DNA from: Oceaniovalibus sp. ACAM 378
GTDB lineage: Bacteria; Pseudomonadota; Alphaproteobacteria; Rhodobacterales; Rhodobacteraceae
Direction of reading: 5' to 3'
Assembly (NCBI RefSeq): GCF_008085915.1
Contig: NZ_VSJK01000003.1
Span: forward strand, 248,001 to 312,000
Length of the DNA stretch: 64,000 nucleotides
How positions within the stretch are numbered: position 1 is the first letter of the stretch; the number at the start of each line of letters is the position of its first letter. Both the position numbers and the translations under genes were made by a program. The notes under the pieces were generated by a model that was not told the DNA's origin, searched no databases, and saw only the letters and a list, made by a program, of their open reading frames with translations. Shown one piece after another: positions 38,400 to 55,275 of the stretch.

Positions 38400-39644
38400 T
38401 CAGGAGGCGTCGGCAACGTCCCGTCCGGCGCTGTTGAACCAGACGCGGATCTTGGCGCGGTCCTCTGCTGGCAATTCGGTGATATTTGCCGGGGGCATGG
38501 CGTGGGAGACCCCCGCCTGAAGATAGATCTGGCGCGCCTCGCGGGTGATGTCCTTGATGGTTTCAAGGTGCACGCCCTTGGGCGCCTGATGGATTCCTTC
38601 CCACACCGGTTCGCGGGCGTGGCACATGGAGCAGCGGCCCATCACGATGTCCTGCACCTCGTCGAACCCGGCGGTGCTGGCATACATCTGTTCGCGCGCC
38701 GTCAGCTCCTGCGCCTCAAGCGCATCATAATCGCCGTCCCAGGTGTTTGCGGTCGACAGCCAGGCCAGCAGGATGAACAGCACGATCGTCGCAAGGATTG
38801 TCCAGTTCGGAACCGGCTTGCGCATGTGCATCGTGTTGAAATAATGCCGGATCGTCACCCCGATCAGGAACACCAGCGCCGCGATGATCCAGCTGTATTC
38901 CGTGGCAAACGCCAGCGGATAGTGGTTCGACAGCATCAGGAACAACACCGGCAACGTCAGATAGTTGTTATGCGTGCTGCGCAGTTTCGCGATCTTGCCA
39001 TACTTCGGATCGGGCGTGCGCCCGGCCTTGAGATCAGCCACCACAACCCGTTGATTTGGCATGATGATAAAGAACACATTGGCCGTCATGATCGTGGCGG
39101 TGAAGGCCCCCAGATGCAAAAGTGCGGCGCGCCCGGTGAAGATCTGGTGATACCCCCAGGACATGACCACCAGGATGACGAACAGCAGCAGCATCAGCGC
39201 CGTGGGCGTTTCGCCCAGCGGGGATTTGCACAGGAAGTCATAGCAGATCCAGCCAATGGTCAGCGAGCCGGCGGAGATCAGGATCGCTTGCCAGACAGCC
39301 AGATCGGCCTTTGCGGGGTCAATCAGGAACAGTTCGGCACCGACCCAATAGACGATCATCAGCAGCGCCGCGCCGGAAATCCAGGTCCAATAGCTTTCCC
39401 ATTTGAACCAGATCAGATGCTCGGGCATCGCTGCGGGGGCGACCAGATATTTCTGGATGTGATAGAATCCACCGCCGTGTACCTGCCATTCTTCTCCATC
39501 GGCCGGGCCCTTGATATTGCGGTTCAGGCCAAGATCGAGCGCGACGAAATAAAACGACGAACCGATCCAGGCGACAGCGGTGATGACATGCAGCCAGCGC
39601 ACCGCAAAGGCGAACCAGTCCCACATGATGGCGAGATCGTACAT
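38400..39644 (-). CDS. puuD: Membrane urate oxidase with cytochrome c domain (PuuD)
   Basis: Oxidises urate to 5-hydroxyisourate, passing electrons to the respiratory chain instead of oxygen. The 414-residue protein has about eight membrane segments (first at WLHVITAVAWIGSSFYFVAL, residues 18-37) forming the DUF989 domain, then a C-terminal cytochrome c domain with haem motif CSMCH at 338-342 and a Met ligand in HAMPP near 383. ACGGAGG lies upstream of the ATG. It diverges from a LysR regulator and begins the purine catabolism block; the product is used by UraH 1 kb away. Confidence 0.95.
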   Translation of the reverse strand: MYDLAIMWDWFAFAVRWLHVITAVAWIGSSFYFVALDLGLNRNIKGPADGEEWQVHGGGFYHIQKYLVAPAAMPEHLIWFKWESYWTWISGAALLMIVYWVGAELFLIDPAKADLAVWQAILISAGSLTIGWICYDFLCKSPLGETPTALMLLLFVILVVMSWGYHQIFTGRAALLHLGAFTATIMTANVFFIIMPNQRVVVADLKAGRTPDPKYGKIAKLRSTHNNYLTLPVLFLMLSNHYPLAFATEYSWIIAALVFLIGVTIRHYFNTMHMRKPVPNWTILATIVLFILLAWLSTANTWDGDYDALEAQELTAREQMYASTAGFDEVQDIVMGRCSMCHAREPVWEGIHQAPKGVHLETIKDITREARQIYLQAGVSHAMPPANITELPAEDRAKIRVWFNSAGRDVADAS

Positions 39645-39742
39645 GATCGAGAACCTCCGTGCATTTATCCGGCGACACTATCCAAGTATCGATTATCAGA
39701 CTATGTTTTCATTCAGCAAGCAGCGTCAAAGAAAACCGAACA

Positions 39743-40651
39743 ATGTCTTATCTCGATAACATCCGCACCTTTGTCCGGGTCTATGAACTGGGCAGCATGT
39801 CCGCCGCTGCCCGGGATCAGCGACTCTCGCCCGCTGTGGTGTCGGCGCGGATGACCCAGCTTGAGCAGCATCTTGGGGTGCGGTTGTTCCAGCGGACCAC
39901 CCGCAGCCTGTCGCCGACAGAGCAAGGGCAGATTTTTTACGAAGGGGCCTGTGCGGTTCTGGATTCGGTGGAAGATGCCGAGGCGGGCGTGGCCAATATC
40001 ACCGACAACCCCCGCGGCACATTGCATATTGCCGCGCCTTTGGGCATCGGGCGGCGGCTGATCGCGCCCAATATGCCGGACTTCGCCGAAAGCTATCCGC
40101 AGGTTACGGTCCGGCTGAGGTCAAGCGACCGAAAGGTCGATCTGACGGCAGAGGGTCTGGATGTGGCGTTCTTTCTCGGCCGTCCCGAGGATTCGAACCT
40201 GCGCATTCGCAAGATAGCCGATTGCCCCCGGGTTCTGTGCGCCAGTCCGGAATATATCGCGCGCCACGGGCACCCGGTCTCGGGCGAAGCCATCGACCGC
40301 GGGCAGCACAACTGTCTGAACCTGCGTTTTCCCGGAGCGACCGAGTTCCAGTGGAATCTGGAGACACCTGACGGCCCCCGCCGGTTCGAGGTGCACGGCC
40401 GGTTCGAAAGCGACGATGGCGATGTCCTGACCAACTGGGCGTTGGACGGCGCGGGAATCGTCATGAAACCGGTGTTCGAGATTGCTGAACATCTGGCCAG
40501 CGGCGCCTTGGTCCGCGTGGTCGAAGACACGCCACCCCTGCCGGTGCAGGTGGCGTGTCTTTACGCACACAGGCGGCATCAGGACCCCAAGTCGCGGCTG
40601 TTCATGGAATTCATGATCGCGCGGATGACCCCGGCTCTGAACGTGGTCTGA
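39743..40651 (+). CDS. LysR-type regulator next to the urate genes
   Basis: A 302-residue LysR regulator with the N-terminal winged helix (FVRVYELGSMSAAARDQRLS, RLFQRTTRSLSPTEQG) and a LysR substrate domain. It diverges from puuD over 98 bases and converges on uraH, so it is a good candidate for control of urate breakdown, with urate or a ureide as inducer. The divergent region has an ATCGAT core and T-N11-A spacing near 39690-39705. The target assignment is inference from position. Confidence 0.88.
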   Translation: MSYLDNIRTFVRVYELGSMSAAARDQRLSPAVVSARMTQLEQHLGVRLFQRTTRSLSPTEQGQIFYEGACAVLDSVEDAEAGVANITDNPRGTLHIAAPLGIGRRLIAPNMPDFAESYPQVTVRLRSSDRKVDLTAEGLDVAFFLGRPEDSNLRIRKIADCPRVLCASPEYIARHGHPVSGEAIDRGQHNCLNLRFPGATEFQWNLETPDGPRRFEVHGRFESDDGDVLTNWALDGAGIVMKPVFEIAEHLASGALVRVVEDTPPLPVQVACLYAHRRHQDPKSRLFMEFMIARMTPALNVV

Positions 40652-40669
40652 AGGTGGCCTGAACGGGGA

Positions 40670-41023
40670 TCAGCTGCCGCGATAGGTCGAGTAGCCGAAG
40701 GGCGAAAGCAGCAGCGGCACATGGTAGTGGCTTTGTTCCGACATACCGAACCGCAGCGGGATCACATCCAGAAACCGCGGGTTTTCCGGTGTGACGCCAC
40801 AAGCATCCAGATAGGCGCCCGCATGAAACACCAGTTCATAGGTGCCGGTGGCAAATTCGCCCTCTGGCAGGATCTGGCTGTCGGTGCGCCCGTCGTCATT
40901 GGTGGTCAGTGTGCGCAAGAGCGTGCGAACCTCGCCCTTTATCGAAAAAAGCTCAATCTTCATATCTTGTGCCGGGCAACCGCGTGCGGTGTCCAGAACG
41001 TGGGTTGTCAGATATCCGGGCAT
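40670..41023 (-). CDS. uraH: 5-Hydroxyisourate hydrolase (transthyretin-like)
   Basis: A 117-residue enzyme hydrolysing 5-hydroxyisourate to OHCU, the step after PuuD. It begins [17 protein letters not shown], has [31 protein letters not shown] at the end; the C-terminal YRGS tetrapeptide is the family signature. The ATG at 41023 is preferred to the longer frame. It diverges from puuE-uraD over 141 bases. Confidence 0.96.
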
Positions 41024-41110
41024 GGGCTGTCCTTTCAAGAATATTGCCTGTGTGCACCGGGCGCGCGCGGGGCGGAACCGATCTTCGCGCATGGGTCTTT
41101 TCGGATTTTA

Positions 41111-41143
41111 TTGACAATCCCGCCCGACTAATTGGTCTATCAT
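41111..41143 (+). promoter_or_regulatory. Candidate promoter of the puuE-uraD gene
   Basis: TTGACA at 41111-41116 is a consensus -35 box; GTCTAT (41135-41140) or TATCAT (41138-41143) could be the -10, with spacing of 18 or 21. AATTGGTCTATCATC overlaps it and could be an operator. The puuE ATG with AGGAGAA is 22 bases further on. Confidence 0.45.
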
Positions 41144-41164
41144 CGGCAGACACAGGAGAACCAA

Positions 41165-42574
41165 ATGAACCGTTATCCCCGCGACATGCAAGGCCATGGG
41201 GCCGAAACACCTGACCCGAAATGGCCGAATGGTGCCAAGATCGCCGTACAGCTTGTGCTGAACTATGAAGAGGGCGGTGAAAACTGCATTCTTCACGGGG
41301 ATGCCGCCTCTGAGGCGTTCCTGTCTGAAATCGTCGGGGCCGCGCAATGGCCGGGACAACGCCACGCGAACATGGAATCGATCTATGAATACGGCTCGCG
41401 GGCCGGGTTCTGGCGTTTGCACCGGATGCTCAAGGATCTGCCGATCACCGTCTATGGCGTGGCCACCGCGCTTGCCCGTTCGCCCGAACAGGTGGCGGCG
41501 ATGATCGCGGCGGATTGGGAAATGGCGTCGCACGGGCTGAAATGGGTCGAGCATAAGGACATGCCCGAGGATCAGGAGCGCACCGCAATCGCTGAGGCAA
41601 TCGCCCTGCACACCGAAGTCGTCGGCGCGCCGCCGCGTGGATGGTATTGCGGGCGGTCATCGGAAAACACCATCCGCCTTGCCGCAGAAACCGGGCAGTT
41701 TGCCTATGTCGCTGATGCTTATGCCGACGATCTGCCGTATTGGAGCGAGTTCGGCGAAAGGGATCAGTTGATCGTGCCCTATACGCTGGATTGCAACGAC
41801 ATGCGGTTCGCGACGCCACAGGGGTTCAACTCGGGCGATCAGTTTTTCAGCTATCTGCGCGATTCCTTCGACACGCTGTACCGCGAAGGCTGCGAAGGCG
41901 CGCCAAAGATGCTGTCTGTCGGTCTGCACTGCCGTCTGGTCGGTCGTCCGGGCCGCGCCGAGGCGCTGCGCCGGTTCATCGAACATGTGAAATCTCACGA
42001 CGGCGTCTGGTTCGCCACGCGCGAACAGATCGCCGATCATTGGGCAAAAGTGCATCCGCACCAGCGTCACGAACGGCCGAGCGAAATGGACAAGGCCCGC
42101 TTTGTCGAACTCTATGGGTCGATCTTTGAGCATTCGCCCTGGATTGCCGAAGGTGCCCATGACGGCGAACTTGGCGCGGCGCATGACACCGCTGTCGGGC
42201 TGCACAATGCCCTGTCGCGGGTGTTTCGCCGGGCCGATGACAAACAGCGGCTTGGCGTGCTGACCGCGCACCCCGATCTGGCAGGCAAGTTGGCTGCGGC
42301 CAAGCAGCTGACTTCGGAATCGACCGCCGAACAGGCCGGTGCCGGGCTGGACATGCTGACCGACGCGGAGCGTGCAAGCTTTACCGAACTGAATGAAGCC
42401 TACGTTGCCCGAAACGGTTTTCCCTTCATCATCGCCGTGCGCGACCATGACAAGGCCAGCATCCTTGCGGCCTTCAAGCGGCGGCTGGATCAGGACCGTG
42501 ACACCGAATTCGCCGAGGCTCGTCGTCAGGTTGAACGGATCGCACTGCACCGGCTGAAGGCGGTTCTGCCATGA
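41165..42574 (+). CDS. puuE: Fused allantoinase (PuuE) and OHCU decarboxylase (UraD)
   Basis: Bifunctional 469-residue protein. Residues 1-300 are the PuuE-type polysaccharide-deacetylase allantoinase (GAKIAVQLVLNYEEGGEN near 23, EYGSRAGFWRL near 75, ASHGLKW near 121, RSSENTIRLAAETG near 164), opening allantoin to allantoate. Residues about 308-469 are UraD (FVELYGSIFEHSPW, TAHPDLAGKLA with the probable catalytic His near 369, EQAGAGLDMLT, RNGFPFI near 417), which decarboxylates OHCU to (S)-allantoin. The ATG at 41165 has ACAGGAG upstream. The last 4 bases overlap allA. The fusion channels three consecutive steps with UraH. Confidence 0.95.
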   Translation: MNRYPRDMQGHGAETPDPKWPNGAKIAVQLVLNYEEGGENCILHGDAASEAFLSEIVGAAQWPGQRHANMESIYEYGSRAGFWRLHRMLKDLPITVYGVATALARSPEQVAAMIAADWEMASHGLKWVEHKDMPEDQERTAIAEAIALHTEVVGAPPRGWYCGRSSENTIRLAAETGQFAYVADAYADDLPYWSEFGERDQLIVPYTLDCNDMRFATPQGFNSGDQFFSYLRDSFDTLYREGCEGAPKMLSVGLHCRLVGRPGRAEALRRFIEHVKSHDGVWFATREQIADHWAKVHPHQRHERPSEMDKARFVELYGSIFEHSPWIAEGAHDGELGAAHDTAVGLHNALSRVFRRADDKQRLGVLTAHPDLAGKLAAAKQLTSESTAEQAGAGLDMLTDAERASFTELNEAYVARNGFPFIIAVRDHDKASILAAFKRRLDQDRDTEFAEARRQVERIALHRLKAVLP

Positions 42575-43068
42575 AGAACGCCGAAATGACCCGCACCATC
42601 ACCGCGCAACCGCTGAGTGCTGCGGCATTCGCCCCTTTTGGCGAGGTTCTGGAAGTGTCGGGTGATCCTGACAAACTGATCAACGCCGGGCTGTGTGGCC
42701 GGTTTCACGATCGCGCCCGGCTTGACTTTGCCCAAGGCCGCGCCGGGATCAGCATCTTTGATGCCACGCCCCGGTCGCTGCCCCATAGACTTGACCTGCT
42801 TGAGCGCCACCCAGACGGCTCTCAGGCCTTTTTGCCGATGCACCAGAACCCCTGGCTTGTCATCGTCGCGACCGATCCCGACGCCACGCCGCTCGCCTTT
42901 CTGGTGGCACCGGGGCAGGGGGTCAATCTGCACCGGGGAACATGGCACGGAGTTCTGACACCGCTGCACGCCCCCGGACTTTTCGCCGTGATCGATCGGA
43001 TCGGCGATGGTGCCAACCTGGAAGAACGCAGGATCGAGCCACCGTGGATCGTGACTGAACCAACCTGA
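42571..43068 (+). CDS. allA: Ureidoglycolate lyase
   Basis: A 165-residue cupin-like enzyme splitting (S)-ureidoglycolate into glyoxylate and urea. Markers are TAQPLSAAAFAPFGEVLE-type start, INAGLCGRFHDRARLDF near residue 35, LERHPDGSQAFLPM near 75, VNLHRGTWHGVLTPL near 120. Its ATG overlaps the puuE-uraD stop (ATGA). The glyoxylate it makes is the substrate of the bhc operon 6.4 kb downstream. Confidence 0.95.
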   Translation: MKNAEMTRTITAQPLSAAAFAPFGEVLEVSGDPDKLINAGLCGRFHDRARLDFAQGRAGISIFDATPRSLPHRLDLLERHPDGSQAFLPMHQNPWLVIVATDPDATPLAFLVAPGQGVNLHRGTWHGVLTPLHAPGLFAVIDRIGDGANLEERRIEPPWIVTEPT

Positions 43069-43095
43069 AGCCGCCGCCAAATAGGAACTGGCGCC

Positions 43096-43441
43096 CCTGA
43101 CAACAGGTCGGCAGAGATCATCCCGATCGAGGTTCTCGGCGGCGGCGTGATCGTCATGTTCGCCATGGTCGTGGCCGCAGGTCTCTCGATGCGGTCGAAT
43201 GGGGCATGGAATTGTCGCACCATGGTGATCTTTTTCGGTCGGTCTGGGTCTGCCGCTTGAACCCAACGCGGTGCAGTATCTTCCCGACGGGGTGCGGGTG
43301 CTGATGGTGGCGGGTCTTCTGCCCCTGAATCTTGTCCTTCCCGAAGAGCTGGCGGATGAGGACGTCGCGCGCGGCCTGTCCGGTTACGGCACCTATCGTC
43401 ATCCGCCCGAGGATGCGGTGCTGGTAACCGCACGCGCCTGA
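43096..43441 (+). pseudogene. Remnant of an NCS2 (xanthine/uric acid) permease
   Basis: Two reading frames carry the C-terminal part of a nucleobase permease. Frame one (43117 on) reads IPIEVLGGGVIVMFAMVVAA and GLSM, then WNCRTMVIFF; after the T run at 43231-43235 the similarity moves one frame and reads SVGLGLPLEPNAVQYLPDGV, VLMVAGLLP, LNLVLPEELADED, ending with a stop at 43439. About ten residues between GLLP and LNLVLP usual in the family are missing, and roughly the first two thirds of the gene are gone. It therefore has a frameshift, an internal deletion and 5' truncation. It is not a copy of the intact permease at 44.9 kb, whose sequence differs. Confidence 0.8.
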
Positions 43442-43516
43442 TCGCGACTTTTGATTGACGCTGTGGCCTCTGCCGCTTACGGGCGGGGGCCGTTTCCTTT
43501 TTCAGGATTGCCGGGA

Positions 43517-44266
43517 ATGTATGATCTCATCCTTCTCATGGGGGCCGCCTTTGCGGCTGGAATCGTCAATACCATCGCCGGTGGTGGCACGTTTCTGACG
43601 TTTCCGGCGCTGGTTCTGACCGGAATGCCACCGATCCTTGCCAATGCGACCAGTGCGGTGGCGGTGTTTCCCGGATATCTGGGCGGCGTCGTCGGATTCC
43701 GCGCCGAAATCGCGCAACTGGATCGCCGCCGCCTGATGCTCATGACTGCTACCGCGCTGCTGGGTGGAATGGCGGGGGGGCTGCTGTTGCTTGTGTCATC
43801 GGATGCGGCATTTGCGGCGATCGTGCCCTTCCTGTTGATCGGAGCAACGGCGGTCTTTGTCTGGGGCGACTGGCTGCGCGCGTGGCTGGGGCGTTCGGCG
43901 CGGAGCGTTACGCCGTTCGGCGCGGTGGGGCTGTTTCTTGTTTCGCTCTATGGCGGGTATTTCAACGGCGGGCTGGGGATCGTCCTGCTGGCGCTGTTTA
44001 CCATGTGGGGGATGGCCGACATTCACCAGATGAACGGCCTGAAGAACGCGATGTCCTTTGCGGTGTCGGCAGTTTCGGTGGCGGTCTTTGCCCTGGCCGG
44101 GCTGGTGGCCTGGCCACAGGCGCTGGCGATGATGGTCGCGGCGACGGTCGGGGGCTATGCCGGGGCACCGTTGTCGCGCCTGTTGCCGCGCGCCGCGGTG
44201 CGCGCAGGGATTGCGCTGGCCGGGTTTGGTACGGGCGCGGTGTTCCTGTGGCGGCTGATCGCCTGA
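43517..44266 (+). CDS. TSUP/TauE-SafE family permease
   Basis: A 249-residue membrane protein with the family repeat AAGIVNTIAGGGTFLTFPAL near residue 14 and YGGYFNGGLGIVLLALF near 155, and about eight hydrophobic segments. The substrate is unknown; in this setting it might move an organic acid or anion from ureide metabolism, but that is only position. The ATG at 43517 has AGGA upstream; the longer frame is not needed. Confidence 0.85.
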   Translation: MYDLILLMGAAFAAGIVNTIAGGGTFLTFPALVLTGMPPILANATSAVAVFPGYLGGVVGFRAEIAQLDRRRLMLMTATALLGGMAGGLLLLVSSDAAFAAIVPFLLIGATAVFVWGDWLRAWLGRSARSVTPFGAVGLFLVSLYGGYFNGGLGIVLLALFTMWGMADIHQMNGLKNAMSFAVSAVSVAVFALAGLVAWPQALAMMVAATVGGYAGAPLSRLLPRAAVRAGIALAGFGTGAVFLWRLIA

Positions 44267-44270
44267 GCGG

Positions 44271-44783
44271 TCAACCAAAGCCGTTCAGGATCAGCACCCC
44301 CGGCAACCAGCCGGTGAACACGCCCGCCAGACCGGTCGCCAGAGCGACGGCACGGCTGATCGGAGCGCGCAGCGCCAGCGCCACGAAATACAACACCCAA
44401 AGCCCCGACCACGTCAGCCAGCTCAGGCCAAGCCACAGGGCGAAGGCGCTGTCTGCATCCGCCACCTCGCGCCAGGCCACGGGCAGGACGGTGATCGCCA
44501 CGAACAGGCTGAACCAACCCAGCCCGCGCCCGTCGCCTCCGGTCAGCCGGTTCCACGCCACCCAAAGATAGGTGATCGCGAACAGCAGCGTCATCGCCGC
44601 GGCTGCGATGGAAGTGTCATCGGCACCGGGGCCAAGGGCCATATATCCCGCGACCACCGCCGCAATGGTTCCGCTGGCCAGATTGATCGGTACGATTTCA
44701 CGGGAATCGATCTGGTCGGCCATCCACAATGAATTCAGGCATAAGACGGCACCGACATAAAGCAGCACGAGACCCGTCAACAT
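44271..44783 (-). CDS. AmiS/UreI family urea or amide channel
   Basis: A 170-residue protein with six to seven membrane segments and the family blocks LLYVGAVLCLNSLWM near the N-terminus, EIVPINLASG near 29, FAITYLWVAWNRLTG near 68 and GLGWFSLFVAI near 86. UreI/AmiS proteins conduct urea or short amides. AllA upstream releases urea, so urea export, uptake or recycling is a natural role. No urease genes are in the window. Confidence 0.88.
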   Translation of the reverse strand: MLTGLVLLYVGAVLCLNSLWMADQIDSREIVPINLASGTIAAVVAGYMALGPGADDTSIAAAAMTLLFAITYLWVAWNRLTGGDGRGLGWFSLFVAITVLPVAWREVADADSAFALWLGLSWLTWSGLWVLYFVALALRAPISRAVALATGLAGVFTGWLPGVLILNGFG

Positions 44784-44878
44784 CGAACACTCCGATCAGG
44801 GGAATTTGCAAGGGTGGTCTAAAACGCACACGGCCCGGCGCAGATCGCACCGGGCCGCCTGTTGGTCAGGTGCCGCTA

Positions 44879-46387: not shown

Positions 46388-46450
46388 GATTGGGTCTCCT
46401 CCCCAGTGTGAAAAACTATCTTGCTGTTAAAGTCTGTCTGGCCCGGTGCC

Positions 46451-48730
46451 TCAGCCATAGCTGGACACCGGCATTCCGGCGAGCGCGGCCATGTTCAGAA
46501 GGCCGCGCACTGTCACGCCGGGGGTGACGATATGCGCGCGGTTGCCCATACCCATCAGGATCGGCCCAACCTCAAGCCCGTCTGCCACCGATTTCAGGAT
46601 GTTGCGCGTCGCGCCTGCCGCGTCGGTGTTGGTATAGACCAGCACGTTGGCCTTTCCGGTCAGGCGGCTGCCCGGGAAAAGACGTTCGCGCAGATCCGGG
46701 TCAAGTGCGGCGTCGGTGTGCATCTCGCCCTCATATTCAAACCCGGTATCGGTGGCATCGAGCAAGGCCAGCGCATCGCGTGCCACCCGGCCTGAACGGC
46801 TGTCGAGGTTGCCGAACTGGCTGCCCGAACACAGGGCCACCTTGGGTTTGATCCCAAAGCGTTTCACATGGCGCGCGGCGGCGATCATCGTTTCAGCCAG
46901 TTGCCGCGCATCGGGTTCGGTGTTGACATGGGTGTCGGCGATGAACAGCGGCCCCTTGTCCAGGATCATCAGCGACAGTGCCCCGGCCGGGTGCAAATCG
47001 TCGTTCGCCAGGATCTGCTGGATGTAATTCAGGTGCCACAGGTACTGACCCACAGTGCCGCAGATCATGCTGTCCGCCTCGCCCCGGTGGACCATCGTCG
47101 CGGCGATGGCGGTGGAGTTGGTGCGCAGGATCGCCTTGGCCAGATCGGGGGTGACACCCTTGCGCTGCATGATGGCGTGATAGCTGCCCCAGTAATCCCG
47201 GTATCTTGCGTCGCTTTCAGGGTTCACCAGTTCGAAATGCTCACCGGCCCGCACCGAAAGCCCCTCACGCTCGATCCGTTGTTCGATCACCTCGGGGCGG
47301 CCGACAAGGATGGCGGTTTCGCTCAGCTCTTCGGTCATTGACTGAACGGTACGCAGCACACGGGGTTCTTCGCCCTCGGCAAACACGATGCGGCGCTGTT
47401 CCTTGCGCGCGGCCATGAAAACCGGCCGCATGATCAGGGCCGAGCGATAGACCTGAGTTTGCAGGCTTTTGCCGTAGGCCTCCAGATCAATCTCGCGTGT
47501 CGCCACGCCGCTTTCGATGGCCGCTTTGGCCACAGCCACAGCGATGGTCGGCAAAAGCCGGGGGTCAAAGGGTTTCGGGATCAGGTATTCCGGGCCAAAC
47601 GCGAGCCGTTCGCCCTGATATGCCGCACCCAGTTCGGCGCTGGCCGGCGCGCGGGCAAGCCCGGCAATCGCTTCGACACAGGCGACTTTCATCGCGTCGT
47701 TGATCTCGGTCGCGCCGGAATCCAGCGCGCCGCGAAAGATGAACGGGAAGCACAACACGTTGTTCACCTGGTTCGGATAATCGCTGCGCCCTGTGGCAAT
47801 CAGCGCCTCGGGGGAAACCTCGCGTACCAGCTCGGGCATGATTTCGGGTGTTGGATTGGCCAGCGCAAAGATGATCGGATGGGCGGCCATCTTTTTGACC
47901 ATCTCCTGCGTCAGCAGGCCGGGGCCAGAGACGCCAAGAAACAGGTCGGCGCCCTCCATCGCATCCATCACGCTGCGCATCTCGGTATTGCGCGCGAATT
48001 CTGCCTTCTCTGCGGTCAGGTTGTTGCGCGAGGTGTGCACCACTCCCTTGGAATCCAGCATGGTGATGTTTTCCTTCTGGACCCCCATCACCATCATCAT
48101 CTTCAGGCAGGCAATACCGGCGGCCCCGGCGCCCAATGCGACGACCTTGATATCCTCGAACCGCTTGTTCGCCACCAGCAGCGCGTTGGTGGCGGCGGCG
48201 GCGGCAACGATGGCAGTGCCGTGCTGGTCGTCGTGAAAGACCGGGATGCCCATCCGTTCACGGCAGATCCGTTCGACGATGAAACAGTCGGGGGCCTTGA
48301 TGTCTTCGAGATTTATCGCGCCGAATGTCGGCTCCAGACGGCAGACCAGATCGGCCAGCTTTTCGGGGTCGGTCTCGTTCACTTCGATATCGAAACAATC
48401 GATCCCGGCGAATTTCTTGAACAGGACCGCCTTGCCCTCCATCACCGGTTTGGACGCCTGCGCGCCGATGTCGCCCAGACCCAGAACCGCGGTGCCATTG
48501 GTGATCACCGCGACCAGATTGCCCTTCGCGGTATAGCGGAAGGCTTCCTGTGCGTTCTTCTCGATTTCCAGACAGGCTTCGGCCACGCCGGGGGAATAGG
48601 CGCGGCTCAGGTCGCGCCCGGTCGCCATTGGCTTGGTCGCCCGGATCTCGAGCTTTCCGGGCCGGGGGAATTCGTGATAATCCAGTGCGGCCTGGCGTTC
48701 AGTGGCCTTTTTGGTGTCTTCTGGTGACAT
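46451..48730 (-). CDS. maeB: NADP-dependent malic enzyme with phosphotransacetylase-like domain
   Basis: Oxidative decarboxylation of malate to pyruvate. The 759-residue hybrid form has the malic enzyme domain at residues 1-430 ([44 protein letters not shown] near 170, [14 protein letters not shown] near 198) and a phosphotransacetylase-like domain at about 440-759 without expected transferase activity. AGGAGAATTGAG precedes the ATG. It lies between the urate permease and the bhc operon on the same strand and could drain C4 acids made by the cycle. The 287 bases upstream hold an ATAACGTAA word and no gene. Confidence 0.96.
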
Positions 48731-49017
48731 CTCAATTCTCCTGTTGCGGCTTTTTTTATATTCTTACGTTATGCCAAAGCGTCTGGCAGTTCATCAAAAC
48801 CGGCGTCTTCAGCAAAACCACCGGCTGCTGCTTGGGTTCGGGACTGCGCAGCACTGTGGGGCCCGAGAAGGCGAGGGCGTGCCACGGGAAGTCGCCCCCG
48901 TTCCGTTGATTTTGTCAAAGAGCCTGCGCGCGCGATCGGTCGATGAGGTCGTGACGTCCGGCAAGGCCCGACCGATGCGCCCAAGCGCGACGGTGCGATG
49001 GCTTTGCCGGTTCTGCA

Positions 49018-49983
49018 TTAAAAATCGACTTCGATTGCAATGCCTTTTTCCACGGCCAGATCGACAACCGCTGACGCAACTGCCAGATCCTGAAGCCCGA
49101 CACCCGTGCCATCGAACAGGGTGATTTCGTCATCTGACGTGCGGCCCGCGTGGCTGCCGTTGATCACGGCGCCCAGTTCGGTGATGTCTTCGCGACGGAT
49201 CGACAGGTCCAGCATGGCGTGCTGGCATTCGCCGATGGTGATCGACTGGGCGATTTCGTCGGTGAACAGGGTCGCGTGGCCGATCAGGGCGGTATCGACC
49301 TCCATCTTGCCTTTGGTATCCGTGCCCATACAGGCGATATGGGTGCCCGGTTTCACCTGATCGTGGGTCAGGATCGGATCGATGCTGGAGGTGATGGTGA
49401 CGATCACATCGGCCTGCGCCCCCAGTTGTTCGACCGTGACGGATTCGAACGCGAGGCCCAGACCTTCGGCGACTTTGCGCAGCCCATCGAGTTTCTCGGG
49501 CGAGCGGTTCCAGGCCACGACCTTTTCGAAATTCCGTTGTGCAGCGACGGCGCGCAACTGGAACGCCGCCTGATGGCCCGCGCCGATGATGCCAAGCACC
49601 TTTGCGTCCCTGCGCGCCAGATGCGCGACCGAAACCGCTGCGGCGGCGGCAGTGCGCAGAGCGGTCAACAGGTTGCCCCCGACGACGGCGCGGCATTTGC
49701 CAGTGTCGGCATCAAACAGGAACACGGTGGACTGGTGGTTGGTCAGCCCCTTTGCCGCATTGCCCGGCCAATAGCCGCCGGATTTCAACCCGAGATCCAG
49801 CGCCGCCCGGTCGAACCCTGACTTGAATCCGTACAGCGCATCGGCATGGCCGATCGCTTCGCGGATCACCGGAAAGTTGTATGCGGATTTCGCAGCCATC
49901 GAGGCGAAGACCTTTTCAACCGCGTCAAAGCTGGCTTCGGGGGTGATAAGATCGGCAATGGCGGCTTCGGGAACGATGTACAT
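49018..49983 (-). CDS. bhcD: Iminosuccinate reductase BhcD
   Basis: Reduces iminosuccinate to L-aspartate, closing the beta-hydroxyaspartate cycle. The 321-residue protein belongs to the ornithine cyclodeaminase/mu-crystallin family: TLRTAAAAAVSVAHLARRDA leading to the Rossmann loop GIIGAGHQAAFQLRAV near residue 128, ACMGTDTKGKMEVD near 215. The ATG at 49983 has AAGGA upstream. It is the last gene of bhcABCD and is separated from bhcC by 98 bases with a large hairpin. Assignment rests on the family plus the full gene order. Confidence 0.93.
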   Translation of the reverse strand: MYIVPEAAIADLITPEASFDAVEKVFASMAAKSAYNFPVIREAIGHADALYGFKSGFDRAALDLGLKSGGYWPGNAAKGLTNHQSTVFLFDADTGKCRAVVGGNLLTALRTAAAAAVSVAHLARRDAKVLGIIGAGHQAAFQLRAVAAQRNFEKVVAWNRSPEKLDGLRKVAEGLGLAFESVTVEQLGAQADVIVTITSSIDPILTHDQVKPGTHIACMGTDTKGKMEVDTALIGHATLFTDEIAQSITIGECQHAMLDLSIRREDITELGAVINGSHAGRTSDDEITLFDGTGVGLQDLAVASAVVDLAVEKGIAIEVDF

Positions 49984-50007
49984 GGGGAATCCTTCATGGT
50001 TGGCGTC

Positions 50008-50058
50008 GGCACCCCCGGGCCCCGTTGCCGGGGCCTCCTCCCGAGCTCCGGGGGTGCC
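50008..50058 (-). promoter_or_regulatory. Branched hairpin between bhcC and bhcD
   Basis: An 11-base outer stem (50008-50018 with 50048-50058, GGCACCCCCGG) encloses an inner 6-base hairpin (50019-50024 with 50029-50034, GCCCCG) with a 4-base loop. It sits in the minus-strand transcript between the bhcC stop and the bhcD start without a following uridine tract there, so it looks like an mRNA processing or stability element. On the plus strand it is followed by TGTTTTTG. Confidence 0.6.
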
Positions 50059-50081
50059 TGTTTTTGTGGTGAAGCTTCGGC

Positions 50082-51242
50082 TCAATATGCCTTGCCGCGG
50101 GCCGAGACCGGCCACAGGGTTTCCACCTTGCCGCCGCGTACGCCGACATACCAGTCATGCACGTTGCAGGTCGGATCGCAGTGACCCGGCACCAGCCGCA
50201 GCTTTTCGTTGATCTTCAGCACGCCATCGGGGTCGGCGACGACGCCATGCTCATCAGAACACTTGATGTATTTCACATCGTCGCGGCCAAAGATGAACGG
50301 CAGACCACTGTCCACCGATTGCGCCTTGAGGCCGGCATCGACGACGGCCAGATGCGGTTTGGCGTGGCTCATCACACTGGTCAGGATGAACAGCGCATTT
50401 TCCCATTCGCCTGCGTCGATCCGGTTGCCGTCCTTATCATGGATGCGGCCATAGTCGGCATCCATGAAGGCATAGGAACCGCACTGCAATTCGTTATAAA
50501 CGCCTGAATTGCTTTCGAAATAGTACGATCCGGTGCCGCCGCCCGACACGAATTCAGGCTTCAGCCCGATTTCGGTCAGTGCGTCCACGGCATCCTTGAC
50601 CTGTGCGATGGCGGCATCCAGCTTGATCTTACGCTCATCAAAACTGTCGATATGCTGCATTGCGCCCTGATAGGCCTGAATACCGGTGAACTTCAGTCCC
50701 TCGGCGGCATCGATTGCCTTGGCGATTTCCAAGACTGCGGCGGTTGTCGTCACGCCGCAACGTCCAGCGCCGCAATCGATCTCGATAAAGCAATGGATCG
50801 TCGTGCCATGCTTGACCGCCGCCGCCGAAAGATCGGCCACATTCGTCACGTCATCGATACAGACGGTAATCTTCGAGCCGCGCTTGGGCAGGCGGGCCAG
50901 ACGGTCGATCTTGGCCGGATCGCGGACCTGATTGGACACCAGAACGTCCTTGATCCCGCCACGCACAAAAACTTCGGCTTCGCTCACCTTCTGACAGCAA
51001 ACGCCGACTGCACCGCCCAGTTCTTCCTGCAGCTTTTGCACGTCGACCGATTTGTGCATCTTGCCATGCGACCGGTGGCGCATGCCATGGGCCTTGGCAT
51101 AGTGGCCCATCTTCTTGATGTTGCGCTCCAGTGCATCCAGATCCAAAATCAGGCAGGGCGTCTGAATGTCGGCTTCGTCCATGCCGGGAACGGCGGGAAC
51201 GTCATAGCCTACTTCGAGGTCATCATAGTTGATATCTTTCAA
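50082..51242 (-). CDS. bhcC: Beta-hydroxyaspartate aldolase BhcC
   Basis: Joins glycine and glyoxylate to (2R,3S)-beta-hydroxyaspartate. The 386-residue PLP enzyme is of the D-threonine aldolase (fold-type III) family: QTPCLILDLDALERNIKKM near residue 36, MRHRSHGKMHKSVDVQKLQ near 60 (PLP lysine), EIDCGAGRCG near 160, VSGGGTGSYYFES near 225, and the metal ligands in SDEHGVV and PGHCDPTCN near 330-365. The start is TTG at 51242: AGGAG lies just upstream, no in-frame ATG occurs near the family N-terminus, and the upstream gene stop overlaps the ribosome site. Confidence 0.95.
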   Translation of the reverse strand: MKDINYDDLEVGYDVPAVPGMDEADIQTPCLILDLDALERNIKKMGHYAKAHGMRHRSHGKMHKSVDVQKLQEELGGAVGVCCQKVSEAEVFVRGGIKDVLVSNQVRDPAKIDRLARLPKRGSKITVCIDDVTNVADLSAAAVKHGTTIHCFIEIDCGAGRCGVTTTAAVLEIAKAIDAAEGLKFTGIQAYQGAMQHIDSFDERKIKLDAAIAQVKDAVDALTEIGLKPEFVSGGGTGSYYFESNSGVYNELQCGSYAFMDADYGRIHDKDGNRIDAGEWENALFILTSVMSHAKPHLAVVDAGLKAQSVDSGLPFIFGRDDVKYIKCSDEHGVVADPDGVLKINEKLRLVPGHCDPTCNVHDWYVGVRGGKVETLWPVSARGKAY

Positions 51243-51253
51243 GGTCTTAGCTC

Positions 51254-52240
51254 CTAATGCTGCATCCAGGGCAATTTGCCCAGATCGACGTTTCCGCCAG
51301 TGATGACGACGCCGACGCGCTTGCCGGCAAAGACTTCGGGGTTTCTGAGGATTACGGCCAGCGGGACGGCGCTGCTGGATTCCATCACAATTTTCATACG
51401 TTGCCAAGTCAGGCGCATCGCATCGATAATCTCTTGATCGCTTGCCGTCAGGATGTCGGTGACGTGGGTCTTGACGAAATGCCAGGTCAGTTCTTTCAGC
51501 GGCACCTTGAGCCCGTCTGCGACGGTTTCCGGGGCATCGTCGGCGATGATGTGACCGGCCCTGAAAGACCGGGCCGCATCGTCAGCCTGATCCGGTTCGG
51601 CGGCATAGATCCGGACGTCGGGCGCAATGGTGGACAGGGTCAGGCAAGTCCCCGAGATCATCCCGCCGCCACCGATCGGCGCGATCACAGCGTCAAGACC
51701 GCCGCCGTGATCCTGCTCCATCTGTTCCAGCAGTTCGCGCGAACAGGTTGCCTGACCCGCAATCACCCGAGGGTCGTTATAGGGATGCACAAAATCAGCC
51801 CCGGTTTCTTCCTGGACACGGGCGAAATATTCCTCGCGGCTGGTGGTCGAGGGTTCGCATTCCGTCACGATGCCGCCGTATCCTTTGACCGCATCTTTTT
51901 TGGCCTGAGGCGCCGTGCGCGGCATCACAACGTGGCACGGAATGCCGCGCCGACCGGCCGCATAGGCGAGTGACAGCGCGTGATTACCGCTGGAATGGGT
52001 CGCAACACCGTTTTTCGCCATTTCATCCGAAAGACCGAACACCGCATTGGATGCGCCGCGCACCTTGAACGCGCCGGCCTTCTGGAAATTCTCGCACTTG
52101 AAGAACAGTTGCGCACCGGTCAGGGCGTTCAGATAGGACGAAGTCAGAACCGGTGTGCGATGAATATGCGGGCAAACGCGATCGTGCGCCTCGATCACGT
52201 CGTCCCATGTGGGGATGATCATTCCGTTAACGTCTTTCAT
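51254..52240 (-). CDS. bhcB: Beta-hydroxyaspartate dehydratase BhcB
   Basis: PLP enzyme dehydrating beta-hydroxyaspartate to iminosuccinate. The 328-residue threonine/serine-dehydratase-like protein has KCENFQKAGAFKVRGASNA with PLP-binding Lys59, HSSGNHALSLAYAA near 84, the phosphate loop PIGGGGMISG near 190 and VVITGGNVDL near the end. It overlaps bhcA by 4 bases and is followed at once by bhcC. By sequence alone it could be a threonine dehydratase; the operon fixes the role. Confidence 0.94.
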   Translation of the reverse strand: MKDVNGMIIPTWDDVIEAHDRVCPHIHRTPVLTSSYLNALTGAQLFFKCENFQKAGAFKVRGASNAVFGLSDEMAKNGVATHSSGNHALSLAYAAGRRGIPCHVVMPRTAPQAKKDAVKGYGGIVTECEPSTTSREEYFARVQEETGADFVHPYNDPRVIAGQATCSRELLEQMEQDHGGGLDAVIAPIGGGGMISGTCLTLSTIAPDVRIYAAEPDQADDAARSFRAGHIIADDAPETVADGLKVPLKELTWHFVKTHVTDILTASDQEIIDAMRLTWQRMKIVMESSSAVPLAVILRNPEVFAGKRVGVVITGGNVDLGKLPWMQH

Positions 52241-53427
52241 TCTGCAGCAGCCTTTTTCTGGGCATTGTCGCGGCGATAGAAATTTTGCGCCGCGGCAACG
52301 CCCGAACCCAGTTTGATATCAAGCCCCAGGTCGACCATCACCATTTCAGCAACACCCAGACCCGAAAGCATCATTGCGTCGGTCAGCGAACCGAGATGGC
52401 CGATCCGGAAAACCTTGCCTGCGACTTCGCCCAGACCGACGCCAAATGCCATACCGTAATCGCGCGCCGCGACGGTGACGATATCGGTGGCGTCGAACCC
52501 TTTGGGCGTGCAGATCGCTGAAACGCTGTCGGAATACAGCTCGGGGGATGCCGCGCAGAGCTTCAGGCCCCAGGCGTCGACAGCGCGTCGCACCCCGGTG
52601 GCGATACGGGTGTGACGGGCCAGAACGTTGTCCAGACCTTCGGCCTCGATCAATTCAATCGACAGTTTCAGACCGTTCAACAGGCCAACCGGCGGCGTAT
52701 AGGGATAGGCATTGTTGGCATAGCCTTTGGCCATGTCGCGGATGTCGAAAAAGGTGCGCGGCAGGGTCGCGGTATCAATCGCCTTCATCGCCTTGTCGGA
52801 AAATCCGACGATTGCCAGACCGGCGGGCAGCATAAAGCCTTTTTGCGATCCGGTGACGGCAATATCGACGCCCCAATCGTCCATCCGGAAATCCATCGAC
52901 CCGATCGAGCTGACGCCATCGACAAACAGCATCGCGGGGTGTTTGGCGGCATCCAGAGCGCGGCGCACCGCAGCGATGTCTGATTTCACACCGGTCGCGG
53001 TTTCGTTGTGGGTGGCCAGCACGACCTTGATCGAATGGGATTTGTCGGCCTTCAGGGCCTCTTCGTATTTGTCGGCAGGCAGACCCTCACCCCAAGGGGT
53101 TTCGACAATCTGCACGTCCAGTTGATGACGCTGGCACATGTCGATCCAGCGGTGGCTGAACATGCCGTTGCGCGCGGCCAGAACCTTGTCCCCGGGGGAC
53201 AGCGTGTTGGTCAGCGCGGTTTCCCAGCCGCCGGTGCCCGTGGAGGGGAAGATGAAAATCTTTGCGCTTTCGGATTTCAGGATACGGCGCACGCCATCGA
53301 GGCAGGGATGCAGGATCTTGCCAAACACGGGCGACCGGTGGTCAATCGTCGGCATATAGCAGGCTTGGCGGATCGCCTCGGGCATGTTGGTCGGGCCGGG
53401 AATGAAAACTGGGTTCTGAAAGCTCAT
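52237..53427 (-). CDS. bhcA: Aspartate-glyoxylate aminotransferase BhcA
   Basis: Transfers the amino group of aspartate to glyoxylate, giving oxaloacetate and glycine. The 396-residue class V aminotransferase has IPGPTNMPEAIR at the start, PSTGTGGWETALTN near 61, ATHNETATGV near 138, VDGVSSIGS near 169 and PLP Lys196 in TGSQKGFM. Length and motifs are shared with serine-glyoxylate aminotransferases; the bhcABCD order and bhcR next door support BhcA. First gene of the operon, divergent from bhcR. Confidence 0.95.
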   Translation of the reverse strand: MSFQNPVFIPGPTNMPEAIRQACYMPTIDHRSPVFGKILHPCLDGVRRILKSESAKIFIFPSTGTGGWETALTNTLSPGDKVLAARNGMFSHRWIDMCQRHQLDVQIVETPWGEGLPADKYEEALKADKSHSIKVVLATHNETATGVKSDIAAVRRALDAAKHPAMLFVDGVSSIGSMDFRMDDWGVDIAVTGSQKGFMLPAGLAIVGFSDKAMKAIDTATLPRTFFDIRDMAKGYANNAYPYTPPVGLLNGLKLSIELIEAEGLDNVLARHTRIATGVRRAVDAWGLKLCAASPELYSDSVSAICTPKGFDATDIVTVAARDYGMAFGVGLGEVAGKVFRIGHLGSLTDAMMLSGLGVAEMVMVDLGLDIKLGSGVAAAQNFYRRDNAQKKAAAE

Positions 53428-53485
53428 GTCGTCCTCCGTCAGGTTGGGTTGCCCCTACGATAAGTCCAACCGCCATGTTCTCCTA

Positions 53486-53558
53486 GTTTTCTGAAAAAGT
53501 TTTCCGTTTCCGAATTTTCCCAATTCATGCCATGTTATCAAGGTACTGAATTTTTCAA
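53486..53558. promoter_or_regulatory. Divergent bhcA/bhcR control region with IclR-like palindromes
   Basis: The 171 bases between the divergent genes are AT-rich. TTTTC-TGA-AAAAGTTTTCC at 53487-53505 contains overlapping GAAAA/TTTTC repeats, and TGAATTTTTCA at 53547-53557 is a perfect 4-base dyad with a 3-base centre. These resemble the A/T-rich dyads bound by IclR-family proteins and are candidate BhcR sites. Confidence 0.5.
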
Positions 53559-53598
53559 CTCGGTCTACCCGGATCATCAGATAAATTGGCAGGACCTT

Positions 53599-54459
53599 AT
53601 GGATTTCGCAAAGAATGACGGGCCCGGTTCCCCAGCAGCGACACCGCGCAAGGCGCGAGGGCGTCCGCGCGGGTTCAATGACAGCACCGAACAGAACACG
53701 ATCAAGTCGCTGGACCGTGCGATGACCCTGCTGGCCCGCCTGTCGGACCTTGAGGGGGCGACCCTGACCGGTCTGGCCGATGATCTGGGCGAGTCGCCAT
53801 CGACCCTGTACCGGGTGCTGACCACCTTGCAGGCCCACAGCATTGTCGAGACTGATGACAGCGATCAGACTTGGCACATCGGTCCGGGCGCGTTTCTGAT
53901 CGGGTCGGCGTTCTTGCGACGCACCAGCCTGATTGACCGATCCCGCCCCGCCTTGCGGCATTTGATGCGCGACAGCGGTGAGACGGCCAATTTGGGAATT
54001 CTGAACGAAGGTCAGGTGCTGTTTGTCAGTCAGGTGGAAACCCGCGCGCCGATCCGTGCGTTCTTTCCGCCCGGCACACGGTCTGCGCTGCATGCATCAG
54101 GCATCGGCAAGGTGCTTATGGCGGATATGGATGACGCCAGCCTTGCGCTTCTGATTGCTGCCGGGCTGCCACGCTACACTGAAAATACCCTGACCGAAGG
54201 CGATGCCCTGATCCGGGATATGGAAGTGATCCGGGCGCGCGGATATTCGCTGGACGACGAAGAGCGTAACGAGGGTATGCGATGTATCGCTGCCCCGGTG
54301 CGCAATGCCCATGACGAGGTGGTGGCGGGTCTGTCGTTGTCGGGGCCGACGGGGCGGGTCACCACCGCCCGCATCCCCGAACTTGCGTCACTTGTGGTCG
54401 CCGCAGCCGAAAGTGTGACCCGCGGCCTTGGCGGCCACCCCTCAGCGACGGGTCAGTGA
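53599..54459 (+). CDS. bhcR: IclR-family regulator BhcR
   Basis: A 286-residue IclR regulator: N-terminal winged HTH (IKSLDRAMTLLARLSDLEGA, LGESPSTLYRVLTTLQAHSI) and C-terminal effector domain (GETANLGILNEGQVLFVSQV, LHASGIGKVLMADM, DDEERNEGMRCIAAPV). BhcR in Paracoccus controls bhcABCD and senses glyoxylate; divergence from bhcA here matches that arrangement. The ATG at 53599 has AGGA upstream; the longer frame adds unlikely residues. Its 3' end overlaps the ureidoglycine aminohydrolase gene by 18 bases, tail to tail. Confidence 0.93.
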   Translation: MDFAKNDGPGSPAATPRKARGRPRGFNDSTEQNTIKSLDRAMTLLARLSDLEGATLTGLADDLGESPSTLYRVLTTLQAHSIVETDDSDQTWHIGPGAFLIGSAFLRRTSLIDRSRPALRHLMRDSGETANLGILNEGQVLFVSQVETRAPIRAFFPPGTRSALHASGIGKVLMADMDDASLALLIAAGLPRYTENTLTEGDALIRDMEVIRARGYSLDDEERNEGMRCIAAPVRNAHDEVVAGLSLSGPTGRVTTARIPELASLVVAAAESVTRGLGGHPSATGQ

Positions 54460-55275
54460 CAGGGCGGCGTGGCGGTTCACATCCTTGTACAGCAGATAGC
54501 GGAACGGCCCCGGGCCGCCAGCATAACAGGCCTGCGGGCAGAAGGCGCGCAGCCACATGAAATCGCCGGCCTCAACCTCGACCCAGTCCTTGTTCAGGGC
54601 ATAGACCGCCTTGCCTTGCAGCACGTACAGCCCGTGTTCCATCACATGGGTTTCCAGAAACGGGATCACGCCGCCCGGTTGCAGGGTGACGATGGTAACA
54701 TGCATGTCGTGGCGCAGATCGCCCGGATCGACAAAGCGCGTCGTTGCCCATGCGCCGTTGGTGTCGGGCATGACATATGGCGCGATGTCCTGTTCATTCA
54801 GGATCAGCGGCTCGGGCTTTTCAATCCCCGGTGCGGCTTCATAGGCCTTGCGAACCCAGTGGAACCGGGTCACCGCATCGGTGTTGTTGCGCAATGACCA
54901 GTCGGCGCCTGCAGGGATATAGGCATATCCGCCCTCAGTCAGCGCGTGGGCTGTGCCGCCGATGGTCAGGGTGAACCCGCCCTCGACGACGAACAACACG
55001 CCCTGCGCGCCATCATCGGCTTCCGGGCGATCGCTGCCGCCGCCGGGTTGGACCTCCATGATGTATTGCGAGAACGTCTCGGCGAAACCGGTCATCGGGC
55101 GGGCAATGATCCACAGGCGCGTGGCGTCCCAGTGGGGCAGGGCGCTGGTGGTGATATCGCGCATCGTGCCATGTGGAATCACGGCATAGGCATCGGTGAA
55201 CACCGCACGTCCGGTCAGAAGATCGGTTTGCGGAGGATGGCCGCCGGTGGGGGCGAAATACTTGGGCGCGGTCAT
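54442..55275 (-). CDS. allE: (S)-Ureidoglycine aminohydrolase (bicupin)
   Basis: Hydrolyses (S)-ureidoglycine to ureidoglycolate and ammonia. The 277-residue protein has two cupin repeats; the first around QPGGGSDRPEADDGAQGVLF (residues 76-95), the second around LQPGGVIPFLETHVMEHGLY near 200 with the metal-binding Glu/His set, and KDWVEVEAGDFMWLRAFCPQ near 230. This matches plant and bacterial UGHY/YlbA. It makes the substrate of AllA 11 kb away while sitting beside bhcR, tying ureide breakdown to the glyoxylate regulator. Confidence 0.93.
   Translation of the reverse strand: MTAPKYFAPTGGHPPQTDLLTGRAVFTDAYAVIPHGTMRDITTSALPHWDATRLWIIARPMTGFAETFSQYIMEVQPGGGSDRPEADDGAQGVLFVVEGGFTLTIGGTAHALTEGGYAYIPAGADWSLRNNTDAVTRFHWVRKAYEAAPGIEKPEPLILNEQDIAPYVMPDTNGAWATTRFVDPGDLRHDMHVTIVTLQPGGVIPFLETHVMEHGLYVLQGKAVYALNKDWVEVEAGDFMWLRAFCPQACYAGGPGPFRYLLYKDVNRHAALSLTRR

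What the first reader, a model, noticed from the sequence alone, without database searches (positions are those of the whole stretch)
38400..55275. Purine ureide breakdown and the beta-hydroxyaspartate cycle form one 17-kb block
The sequence shows puuD, uraH, puuE-uraD, allA, a urate-type NCS2 permease, a UreI/AmiS channel, maeB, bhcDCBA, bhcR and ureidoglycine aminohydrolase within 17 kb. Known chemistry: AllA yields glyoxylate, and BhcABCD convert two glyoxylate to oxaloacetate with loss of ammonia but no CO2. The inference is a dedicated route from urate to C4 acids, where purines serve as carbon as well as nitrogen, instead of burning glyoxylate by the glycerate pathway. The cycle was described for glycolate use; a purine input coupled by gene order would be a new context.
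Basis: partly seen in the sequence, partly recalled or inferred. Interest (0 to 1): 0.85.

Follow-up and report, generated by a model that had tools for sequence, protein, structure and literature searches.

The report
Purine breakdown beside glyoxylate-assimilating cycle
In many Rhodobacteraceae the genes that break purines down to glyoxylate sit next to the genes of a carbon-saving cycle that turns glyoxylate into building blocks, which suggests that these bacteria can use purines as carbon and not only as nitrogen.

Summary
In detail: puuD, uraH, a puuE-uraD fusion, allA, an NCS2 permease, an AmiS/UreI channel, maeB, bhcDCBA, bhcR and an allantoate/ureidoglycine cupin lie in 38400-55275. 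The linkage recurs. Of 120 genera of the family (one genome each), 47 have bhcA over its cut-off; 22 of these have puuD, allA or the cupin within 25 kb of it, but glycolate oxidase glcF is that close in 1 of 46. The linked state needs 12 changes on a BhcA tree. Best reading: the beta-hydroxyaspartate cycle is this cluster's glyoxylate-assimilation module, as gcl is for allantoin in Pseudomonas aeruginosa (PMC12694930). Limits: no clear BhcR-type operator on the purine genes; 0 of 5 same-genus genomes show the linkage; 70 of 116 puuD genomes lack bhcA over the cut-off; malate synthase G is in 114 of 120. 'Dedicated' is unproven. New variant of a known kind; flux and expression untested.

The parts
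38400..39644 (-). puuD, membrane urate oxidase with C-terminal haem-c motif
   Evidence: PF06181 439.5 bits; CSMCH at residue 338
39659..40651 (+). LysR-family regulator, likely local regulator of the purine genes (role inferred from place)
   Evidence: PF00126 and PF03466; no NCBIfam cut-off reached
40670..41092 (-). uraH, hydroxyisourate hydrolase
   Evidence: TIGR02962 over cut-off
41132..42574 (+). puuE-uraD fusion: allantoinase and OHCU decarboxylase
   Evidence: TIGR03212 and TIGR03164 over cut-off
42571..43068 (+). allA, ureidoglycolate lyase, the step that yields glyoxylate
   Evidence: NF002952 263.3 vs 260
43451..44266 (+). TauE/SafE-family membrane protein, role unknown
   Evidence: PF01925
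44271..44783 (-). AmiS/UreI channel, probably for urea
   Evidence: PF02293 171.4 bits
44879..46387 (-). NCS2 permease, xanthine/urate type
   Evidence: TIGR03173 496 vs 414
46451..48730 (-). maeB, malic enzyme with PTA-like domain; possible C4 to C3 outlet
   Evidence: PF00390, PF03949, PF01515; NF009501 below cut-off
49018..50115 (-). bhcD, iminosuccinate reductase (true start probably near 49983)
   Evidence: NF045643 567 vs 500; matches 6rqa
50082..51407 (-). bhcC, 3-hydroxyaspartate aldolase (ORF limits; the true start is downstream of the ORF start, near 51240)
   Evidence: NF045642 765 vs 690; matches 6qkb
51254..52240 (-). bhcB, beta-hydroxyaspartate dehydratase
   Evidence: NF045641 592 vs 550
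52237..53427 (-). bhcA, aspartate-glyoxylate aminotransferase
   Evidence: NF045640 743 vs 650
53491..53507 (.). putative BhcR operator (palindrome), a weak match in the window
53527..54459 (+). bhcR, IclR-type activator (ORF limits; true start probably 53599)
   Evidence: NF045644 374 vs 350, from residue 40 of the ORF; translation
54442..55275 (-). bicupin, allantoate/ureidoglycine hydrolase, tail to tail with bhcR
   Evidence: NF040771 499.5 vs 350, NF008373 520 vs 445

Best explanation
The block is a purine-ureide catabolic cluster with the beta-hydroxyaspartate cycle as its glyoxylate-assimilation module. Shown by sequence families: PuuD, UraH, UraD and PuuE to take urate to allantoate, a cupin for allantoate to ureidoglycolate, AllA to release glyoxylate and urea, BhcABCD and BhcR for two glyoxylate to oxaloacetate, MaeB as a possible outlet to pyruvate, a permease and a urea-type channel. 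Inferred: that ureide-derived glyoxylate flows into the cycle, induces it through BhcR, and lets cells use purines as carbon. The coupling seen is neighbourhood and a shared metabolite, not a shared operator. The same cycle probably also serves glycolate made by an unlinked glycolate oxidase.
For: Gene identities. Linkage in 22 of 47 genera, in 59 of 80 named loci (51 of the 64 with at least 8 kb on both sides) and in 2 of 15 out-of-family genomes. Recurrent neighbours found without prior choice are largely purine genes, including xdhA, xdhB, xdhC and guanine deaminase. glcF linked in 1 of 46. Gcl in 0 of 120. Linked state needs at least 12 changes on the BhcA tree, 5 forced by starred branches. 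maeB in 18 of 18 and amiS in 14 of 14 named loci that have them run in the same direction as bhcABCD. BhcR of Paracoccus denitrificans responds to glyoxylate itself and activates bhc (PMC11323563, passages). In P. aeruginosa the gcl counterpart is needed for growth on allantoin as sole carbon source (PMC12694930).
Against: 25 of 47 bhcA genera show no linkage, some of them cut by contig ends. 0 of 5 same-genus genomes show it. 70 of 116 puuD genomes lack bhcA over the cut-off. Malate synthase G is in 114 of 120. glcF is in 46 of 47 bhcA genomes, and one out-of-family locus has it beside bhc (L144). The BhcR-type motif was at 0 of 45 cupin, 28 allA, 23 puuD, 27 lysR, 18 maeB, 20 ncs2 and 14 amiS upstream regions. 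No expression or growth data.
Confidence: 0.74

Rival explanations
1. The cycle serves glycolate, as described, and its place beside the purine genes is inherited neighbourhood without flux; ureide glyoxylate is burned through malate synthase, malic enzyme and pyruvate dehydrogenase.
For: glcF in 46 of 47 bhcA genomes; malate synthase G in 114 of 120, own genome included, and beside bhc and the cupin in G007; most purine degraders lack bhc; no clear shared operator; growth on glycolate and glyoxylate needs bhcR in P. denitrificans (PMC11323563, passages); L144 has glcF beside bhc.
Against: Neighbourhood alone would have to persist or recur in 22 of 47 genera with many rearrangements, while glcF stays unlinked in 45 of 46.
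Confidence: 0.17
2. Purines are used for nitrogen only; the cycle beside them removes toxic glyoxylate, and its carbon contribution is incidental.
For: Urease alpha in 102 of 120 genomes, own included; AmiS/UreI channel in the block; high nitrogen to carbon ratio of purines (general knowledge).
Against: maeB and other carbon-side genes recur beside bhc; malate synthase could already remove glyoxylate.
Confidence: 0.09

Closest known systems
Beta-hydroxyaspartate cycle of Paracoccus denitrificans (bhcABCD-bhcR)
   Same: Same four enzymes and BhcR over equivalog cut-offs; divergent bhcR-bhcA layout with a palindrome between them (PMC11323563 passages).
   Different: There studied for glycolate and glyoxylate; here embedded among purine-ureide genes.
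Allantoin-inducible gcl cluster of Pseudomonas aeruginosa PA1498-PA1502
   Same: A glyoxylate-assimilation module tied to purine/allantoin breakdown and needed for growth on allantoin (PMC12694930, abstract and passages).
   Different: Chemistry is Gcl/GlxR with loss of CO2 and a shared regulator UgmR; here BhcABCD, and no shared operator was shown.
E. coli allantoin regulon with gcl under AllR
   Same: A glyoxylate-sensing IclR-family regulator governs allantoin and glyoxylate genes (PMC11323563 passages).
   Different: AllR binds both the gcl and the all promoters; the BhcR-type motif was not clearly seen at purine genes.
SAR11 purine catabolism with PuuD
   Same: PuuD-type urate oxidation with glyoxylate proposed as the carbon product (PMC11698098 passages).
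   Different: The word hydroxyaspartate does not occur in that text.

Membership tests
Beta-hydroxyaspartate cycle | bhcA, bhcB, bhcC, bhcD together | tested here: met
   All four over NCBIfam equivalog cut-offs and contiguous
Beta-hydroxyaspartate cycle | divergent IclR-type regulator BhcR | tested here: met
   NF045644 374 vs 350
Beta-hydroxyaspartate cycle | conversion of glyoxylate to oxaloacetate by the proteins | not testable with these tools
   needs enzyme assays
Urate to glyoxylate (ureide) pathway | enzymes for each step from urate to glyoxylate | tested here: met
   PuuD, UraH, UraD, PuuE, AllA by family. The allantoate step rests on the cupin: it is in 110 of the 112 allA genomes and in 0 of the 8 without allA; G068, one of the 2 exceptions, has a classical allantoicase, G064 has neither
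Ureide-coupled glyoxylate-assimilation regulon (UgmR or AllR style) | glyoxylate-assimilation genes beside ureide genes | tested here: met
   22 of 47 genera
Ureide-coupled glyoxylate-assimilation regulon (UgmR or AllR style) | one regulator binding both gene sets | tested here: inconclusive
   motif at 72 of 80 bhcA upstreams; 0 at cupin, allA, puuD, lysR; 1 of 23 puuE and 1 of 26 uraH, reached by 4-5% of permuted motifs; laxer scan 4 of 26 and 1 of 27
Ureide-coupled glyoxylate-assimilation regulon (UgmR or AllR style) | induction by and need for growth on ureides | not testable with these tools
   needs expression and mutants
Glycerate pathway (Gcl) | glyoxylate carboligase gene in the genome | tested here: not met
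   0 of 120 genomes, own included; E. coli control positive

The most novel reading that the evidence does not exclude
In Rhodobacteraceae the beta-hydroxyaspartate cycle is at root the carbon outlet of purine breakdown, repeatedly regained or moved together with ureide genes, and glycolate is a second use of the same module; purines released by plankton would then feed C4 carbon directly into a family that lacks the glycerate route.
Probability: 0.3. Interest if true: 0.78.

Novelty: new variant of a known kind. Interest (0 to 1): 0.6.

Why it matters
The cycle is presented as a route for glycolate. Gene order here points to a second input, purines, which is coupled by genome position far more often than glycolate oxidase is, in a family where no Gcl was found. 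If true, purines are net C4 carbon as well as nitrogen for these bacteria, and carbon and nitrogen budgets of plankton-derived purines should change. It is directly testable with one deletion strain and one labelled substrate.

Tried and rejected
Rejected or undecided: a BhcR regulon over the purine genes. With 200-bp upstreams and a threshold of 9, eight genes (cupin, allA, puuD, lysR, maeB, ncs2, amiS, bhcD) gave 0 hits and puuE and uraH 1 each, which 4.3% and 4.7% of 300 permuted motifs reach. A laxer scan (300 bp, local base composition) gave 134 hits in 1.6 Mb: 114 at bhcA/bhcR, 4 of 26 before puuE, 1 of 27 before uraH, 15 elsewhere. I count it as inconclusive for puuE/uraH and negative for the rest.

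Rejected: co-occurrence of bhc and purine genes as evidence; puuD (116 of 120) and allA (112 of 120) are too common.

Uninformative: glcD at E 1e-150 gave 0 of 120, a bar these genomes do not reach; replaced by glcF, searched only in the 47 bhcA genomes.

Rejected: a recent island by base composition; GC is 0.59-0.63 along the block as elsewhere in the window, and the window has no tRNA.

Rejected as cycle members: BhcA-like proteins of 50-58% identity in L153-L165 (13 loci), none with a bhcB, bhcC or bhcD match in the fetched stretch; two of them (L153, L154) pass the BhcA cut-off, so that cut-off is not perfectly specific. In the family sample, 44 of 47 fetched loci show bhcA, B, C and D; L106 and L136 are cut by contig ends, L134 (G031) shows bhcA and bhcR only.

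Rows dropped or qualified: the linkage count uses the 47 genomes over the bhcA cut-off; 7 of the 54 genomes have only weaker matches and were left out. G105 has no purine genes. Short contigs cut G109, G094, G037, G038, G115 and others. Coordinates were copied by hand into the script. The 80 named loci are the best 80 of 475, so biased to the window's kin. In the Gcl search only the 10 best first-look candidates were scored in some genomes.

Terminator and promoter scan: numbers as in shuffles (14 vs 14.5 and 4 vs 4.8), so weak evidence on operon limits.

Literature: nine searches showed no held paper that reports bhc beside purine genes; I read listings, abstract starts and passages, not whole papers. 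PMC11323563 says in general terms that glyoxylate also arises from purine bases and allantoin. The 2019 Nature paper on the cycle is not held, so I cannot exclude that it shows this gene order.
Full report
What is there. The segment 38400-55275 holds puuD(-), a LysR gene(+), uraH(-), a puuE-uraD fusion(+), allA(+), TauE/SafE(+), AmiS/UreI(-), an NCS2 permease(-), maeB(-), bhcD, bhcC, bhcB, bhcA(-), bhcR(+) and a bicupin(-), with purL next. The four cycle enzymes and BhcR pass their NCBIfam equivalog cut-offs; AllA passes narrowly. PuuD carries a CSMCH motif near its C terminus, as expected of the cytochrome-c type of urate oxidase (type recalled). BhcC and BhcD align nearly end to end with the solved chains 6qkb (D-3-hydroxyaspartate aldolase) and 6rqa (iminosuccinate reductase); the best solved match of BhcA is a serine-glyoxylate aminotransferase, 6pk1, and of the cupin a 'glyoxylate-induced protein', 1sq4.

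The allantoate step. The protein also passes NF040771, bifunctional allantoicase/(S)-ureidoglycine aminohydrolase. In 120 genera the cupin is in 110 of the 112 genomes with allA and in 0 of the 8 without; of the two exceptions, G068 has a classical allantoicase (PF03561, found in 3 of 120, not in the own genome) and G064 has neither. So the cupin is the likely allantoate enzyme, with G064 unexplained. AllC was not searched.

Is the neighbourhood more than chance? I searched one genome per genus for 120 genera of the window's family, all at least 95% complete. The family is given by code; the titles are mostly Rhodobacteraceae genera, as I recall them. bhcA over cut-off 47; puuD 116; allA 112; cupin 110; urease alpha 102; malate synthase G 114; Gcl 0. 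glcF, searched only in the 47 bhcA genomes, is in 46. Within 25 kb of bhcA lie allA in 20 of 46, puuD in 18 of 46, the cupin in 17 of 44, any of the three in 22 of 47, glcF in 1 of 46, malate synthase in 1 of 46, ureC in 0 of 43. Random placement would give about 1.2% per marker, kinship ignored. Draft assemblies may hide some linkage.

Named genomes. Of 80 bhcA loci in named records (best 80 of 475), 59 carry at least one purine-catabolism gene in the fetched stretch of up to 10 kb on each side; of the 64 with at least 8 kb on both sides, 51 do. The cupin lies on the bhcR side of bhcA in 43 of the 74 loci that show bhcD. Clustering called ORFs without prior choice gave neighbour families in at least 6 loci that are largely purine genes: cupin, puuE-uraD, uraH, allA, puuD, a second xanthine-type permease, xdhA, xdhB, xdhC, guanine deaminase; also LysR, maeB, a GAPDH, a dihydrolipoyl dehydrogenase, AmiS, TauE, an unnamed permease, and three clusters that look like antisense ORFs. 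Glycolate oxidase is not among them. A search with ORFs of a glcF locus against L009-L165 hit only L144, an out-of-family locus, where it lies right beside bhc; that one case is against my reading.

History. A quick BhcA tree of 61 rows (25 labelled linked, among them the second copy of G061, whose cupin is a fragment) needs at least 12 changes of the linked state, 5 forced by starred branches, against 19.7 in shuffles: clustered, but not a single event. The purine cassette stands in either orientation to bhc (L023, L063 and L083 against the majority). In L116, L130, L137 and L152 the cupin lies between allA and puuE; in the window's type it lies beyond bhcR, so that bhc sits inside the purine genes. 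Outside the family, 2 of the 15 genomes with bhcA over the cut-off show the linkage (L150, L152); 11 of these 15 also show bhcB, C and D. Five same-genus genomes have BhcA 72-75% identical to the window's, form their own group (SH-aLRT 99), and show no purine gene in the fetched stretch, up to 9.4 kb on each side but only about 1 kb on the bhcR side of L171. The window's nearest rows in the tree are of other genera (G055, 86%). So the window's bhc locus is of another lineage than its genus-mates', by transfer or differential loss. Whether the purine genes moved with it was not tested.

Regulation. A palindrome TTGAAAA-N3-TTTTCAA was found de novo in the bhcR-bhcA gap. At a low threshold 46 of 81 regions (80 loci plus the window) have two sites, centred near -70 and -140 from bhcA, 32 have one, 3 none; the window has one weak site. 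This fits the two-site idea for BhcR in PMC11323563 (passages). The motif is absent from most purine upstreams, with weak hits near puuE/uraH in a few loci. bhcABCD, maeB, the permease and the channel run in one direction; the scan put a terminator-like hairpin between permease and channel and none in the gaps before that, but such sites are no more frequent than in shuffles. Co-transcription of bhc with maeB and the permease is possible, not shown.

How it most likely works. Urate is imported or made, opened to allantoate, converted to ureidoglycolate by the cupin and split by AllA into glyoxylate and urea. Glyoxylate acts on BhcR and enters BhcABCD: two glyoxylate give one oxaloacetate with carbon and nitrogen conserved (PMC8166194, passages). 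MaeB can give pyruvate. Urea goes to urease, which is on contig C25 of the own genome. Enzyme identities are shown by family; flux, induction and growth are inferred.

Comparison. P. aeruginosa couples allantoin to a gcl cluster and needs it for growth on allantoin as sole carbon source (PMC12694930, abstract and passages). The block here is the counterpart with other chemistry. PMC11323563 already notes that glyoxylate arises from purines and allantoin. Nine searches showed no held paper reporting the gene linkage; the 2019 description of the cycle is not held.

Against the reading. 70 of 116 puuD genomes lack bhcA over the cut-off; malate synthase is in 114 of 120; glcF accompanies bhc, mostly unlinked, in 46 of 47; 25 of 47 bhcA genera show no linkage. 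I hold 'glyoxylate-assimilation module of purine breakdown in linked strains' at 0.74 and the bolder 'at root a purine module' at 0.3.

Noticed in passing
window 17824-23809: BMP/PnrA-type nucleoside ABC transporter (22679-23809, 20750-22378, 19650-20753, 18614-19582) with a purine-nucleoside phosphorylase (17824-18672), all on the minus strand, about 15 kb from the urate block; it may feed it.
   Followed up: partly
window 6391-12502: DeoD-type purine-nucleoside phosphorylase (6391-7362) beside ethylmalonyl-CoA pathway genes: a methylmalonyl-CoA-mutase-like protein (7605-9575) and crotonyl-CoA carboxylase/reductase (11207-12502).
   Followed up: no
window, L089-L092: No xdhA, xdhB or xdhC match in the window or in contig C54 208001-248000 and 312001-352000, although xdh genes lie beside bhc in some relatives. 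Not searched elsewhere in the genome.
   Followed up: partly
L153-L165: BhcA-like aminotransferases (50-58% identical) without bhcB, C or D nearby, two of them over the BhcA cut-off: perhaps a second family of unknown role.
   Followed up: no
L134 (genome G031): bhcA over the cut-off with bhcR but no bhcB, C or D match in the fetched stretch.
   Followed up: no
L095 and L096 (genome G061): Two bhc clusters in one genome, each with a cupin gene beside bhcR; the second cupin is a fragment.
   Followed up: no
upstream of bhcA, 80 loci and the window: Two conserved palindromes about 70 bp apart between bhcR and bhcA in 46 of 81 regions; candidate sites for the two-site model of BhcR.
   Followed up: partly
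genome G007, contig C1 57524-63019: Malate synthase G next to the cupin and bhcA, a second glyoxylate sink at the same locus.
   Followed up: no
genome G064: puuD and allA but neither the cupin nor a classical allantoicase, so its allantoate step is open.
   Followed up: no
window 12773-13555: LuxR-type regulator with autoinducer-binding domain.
   Followed up: no
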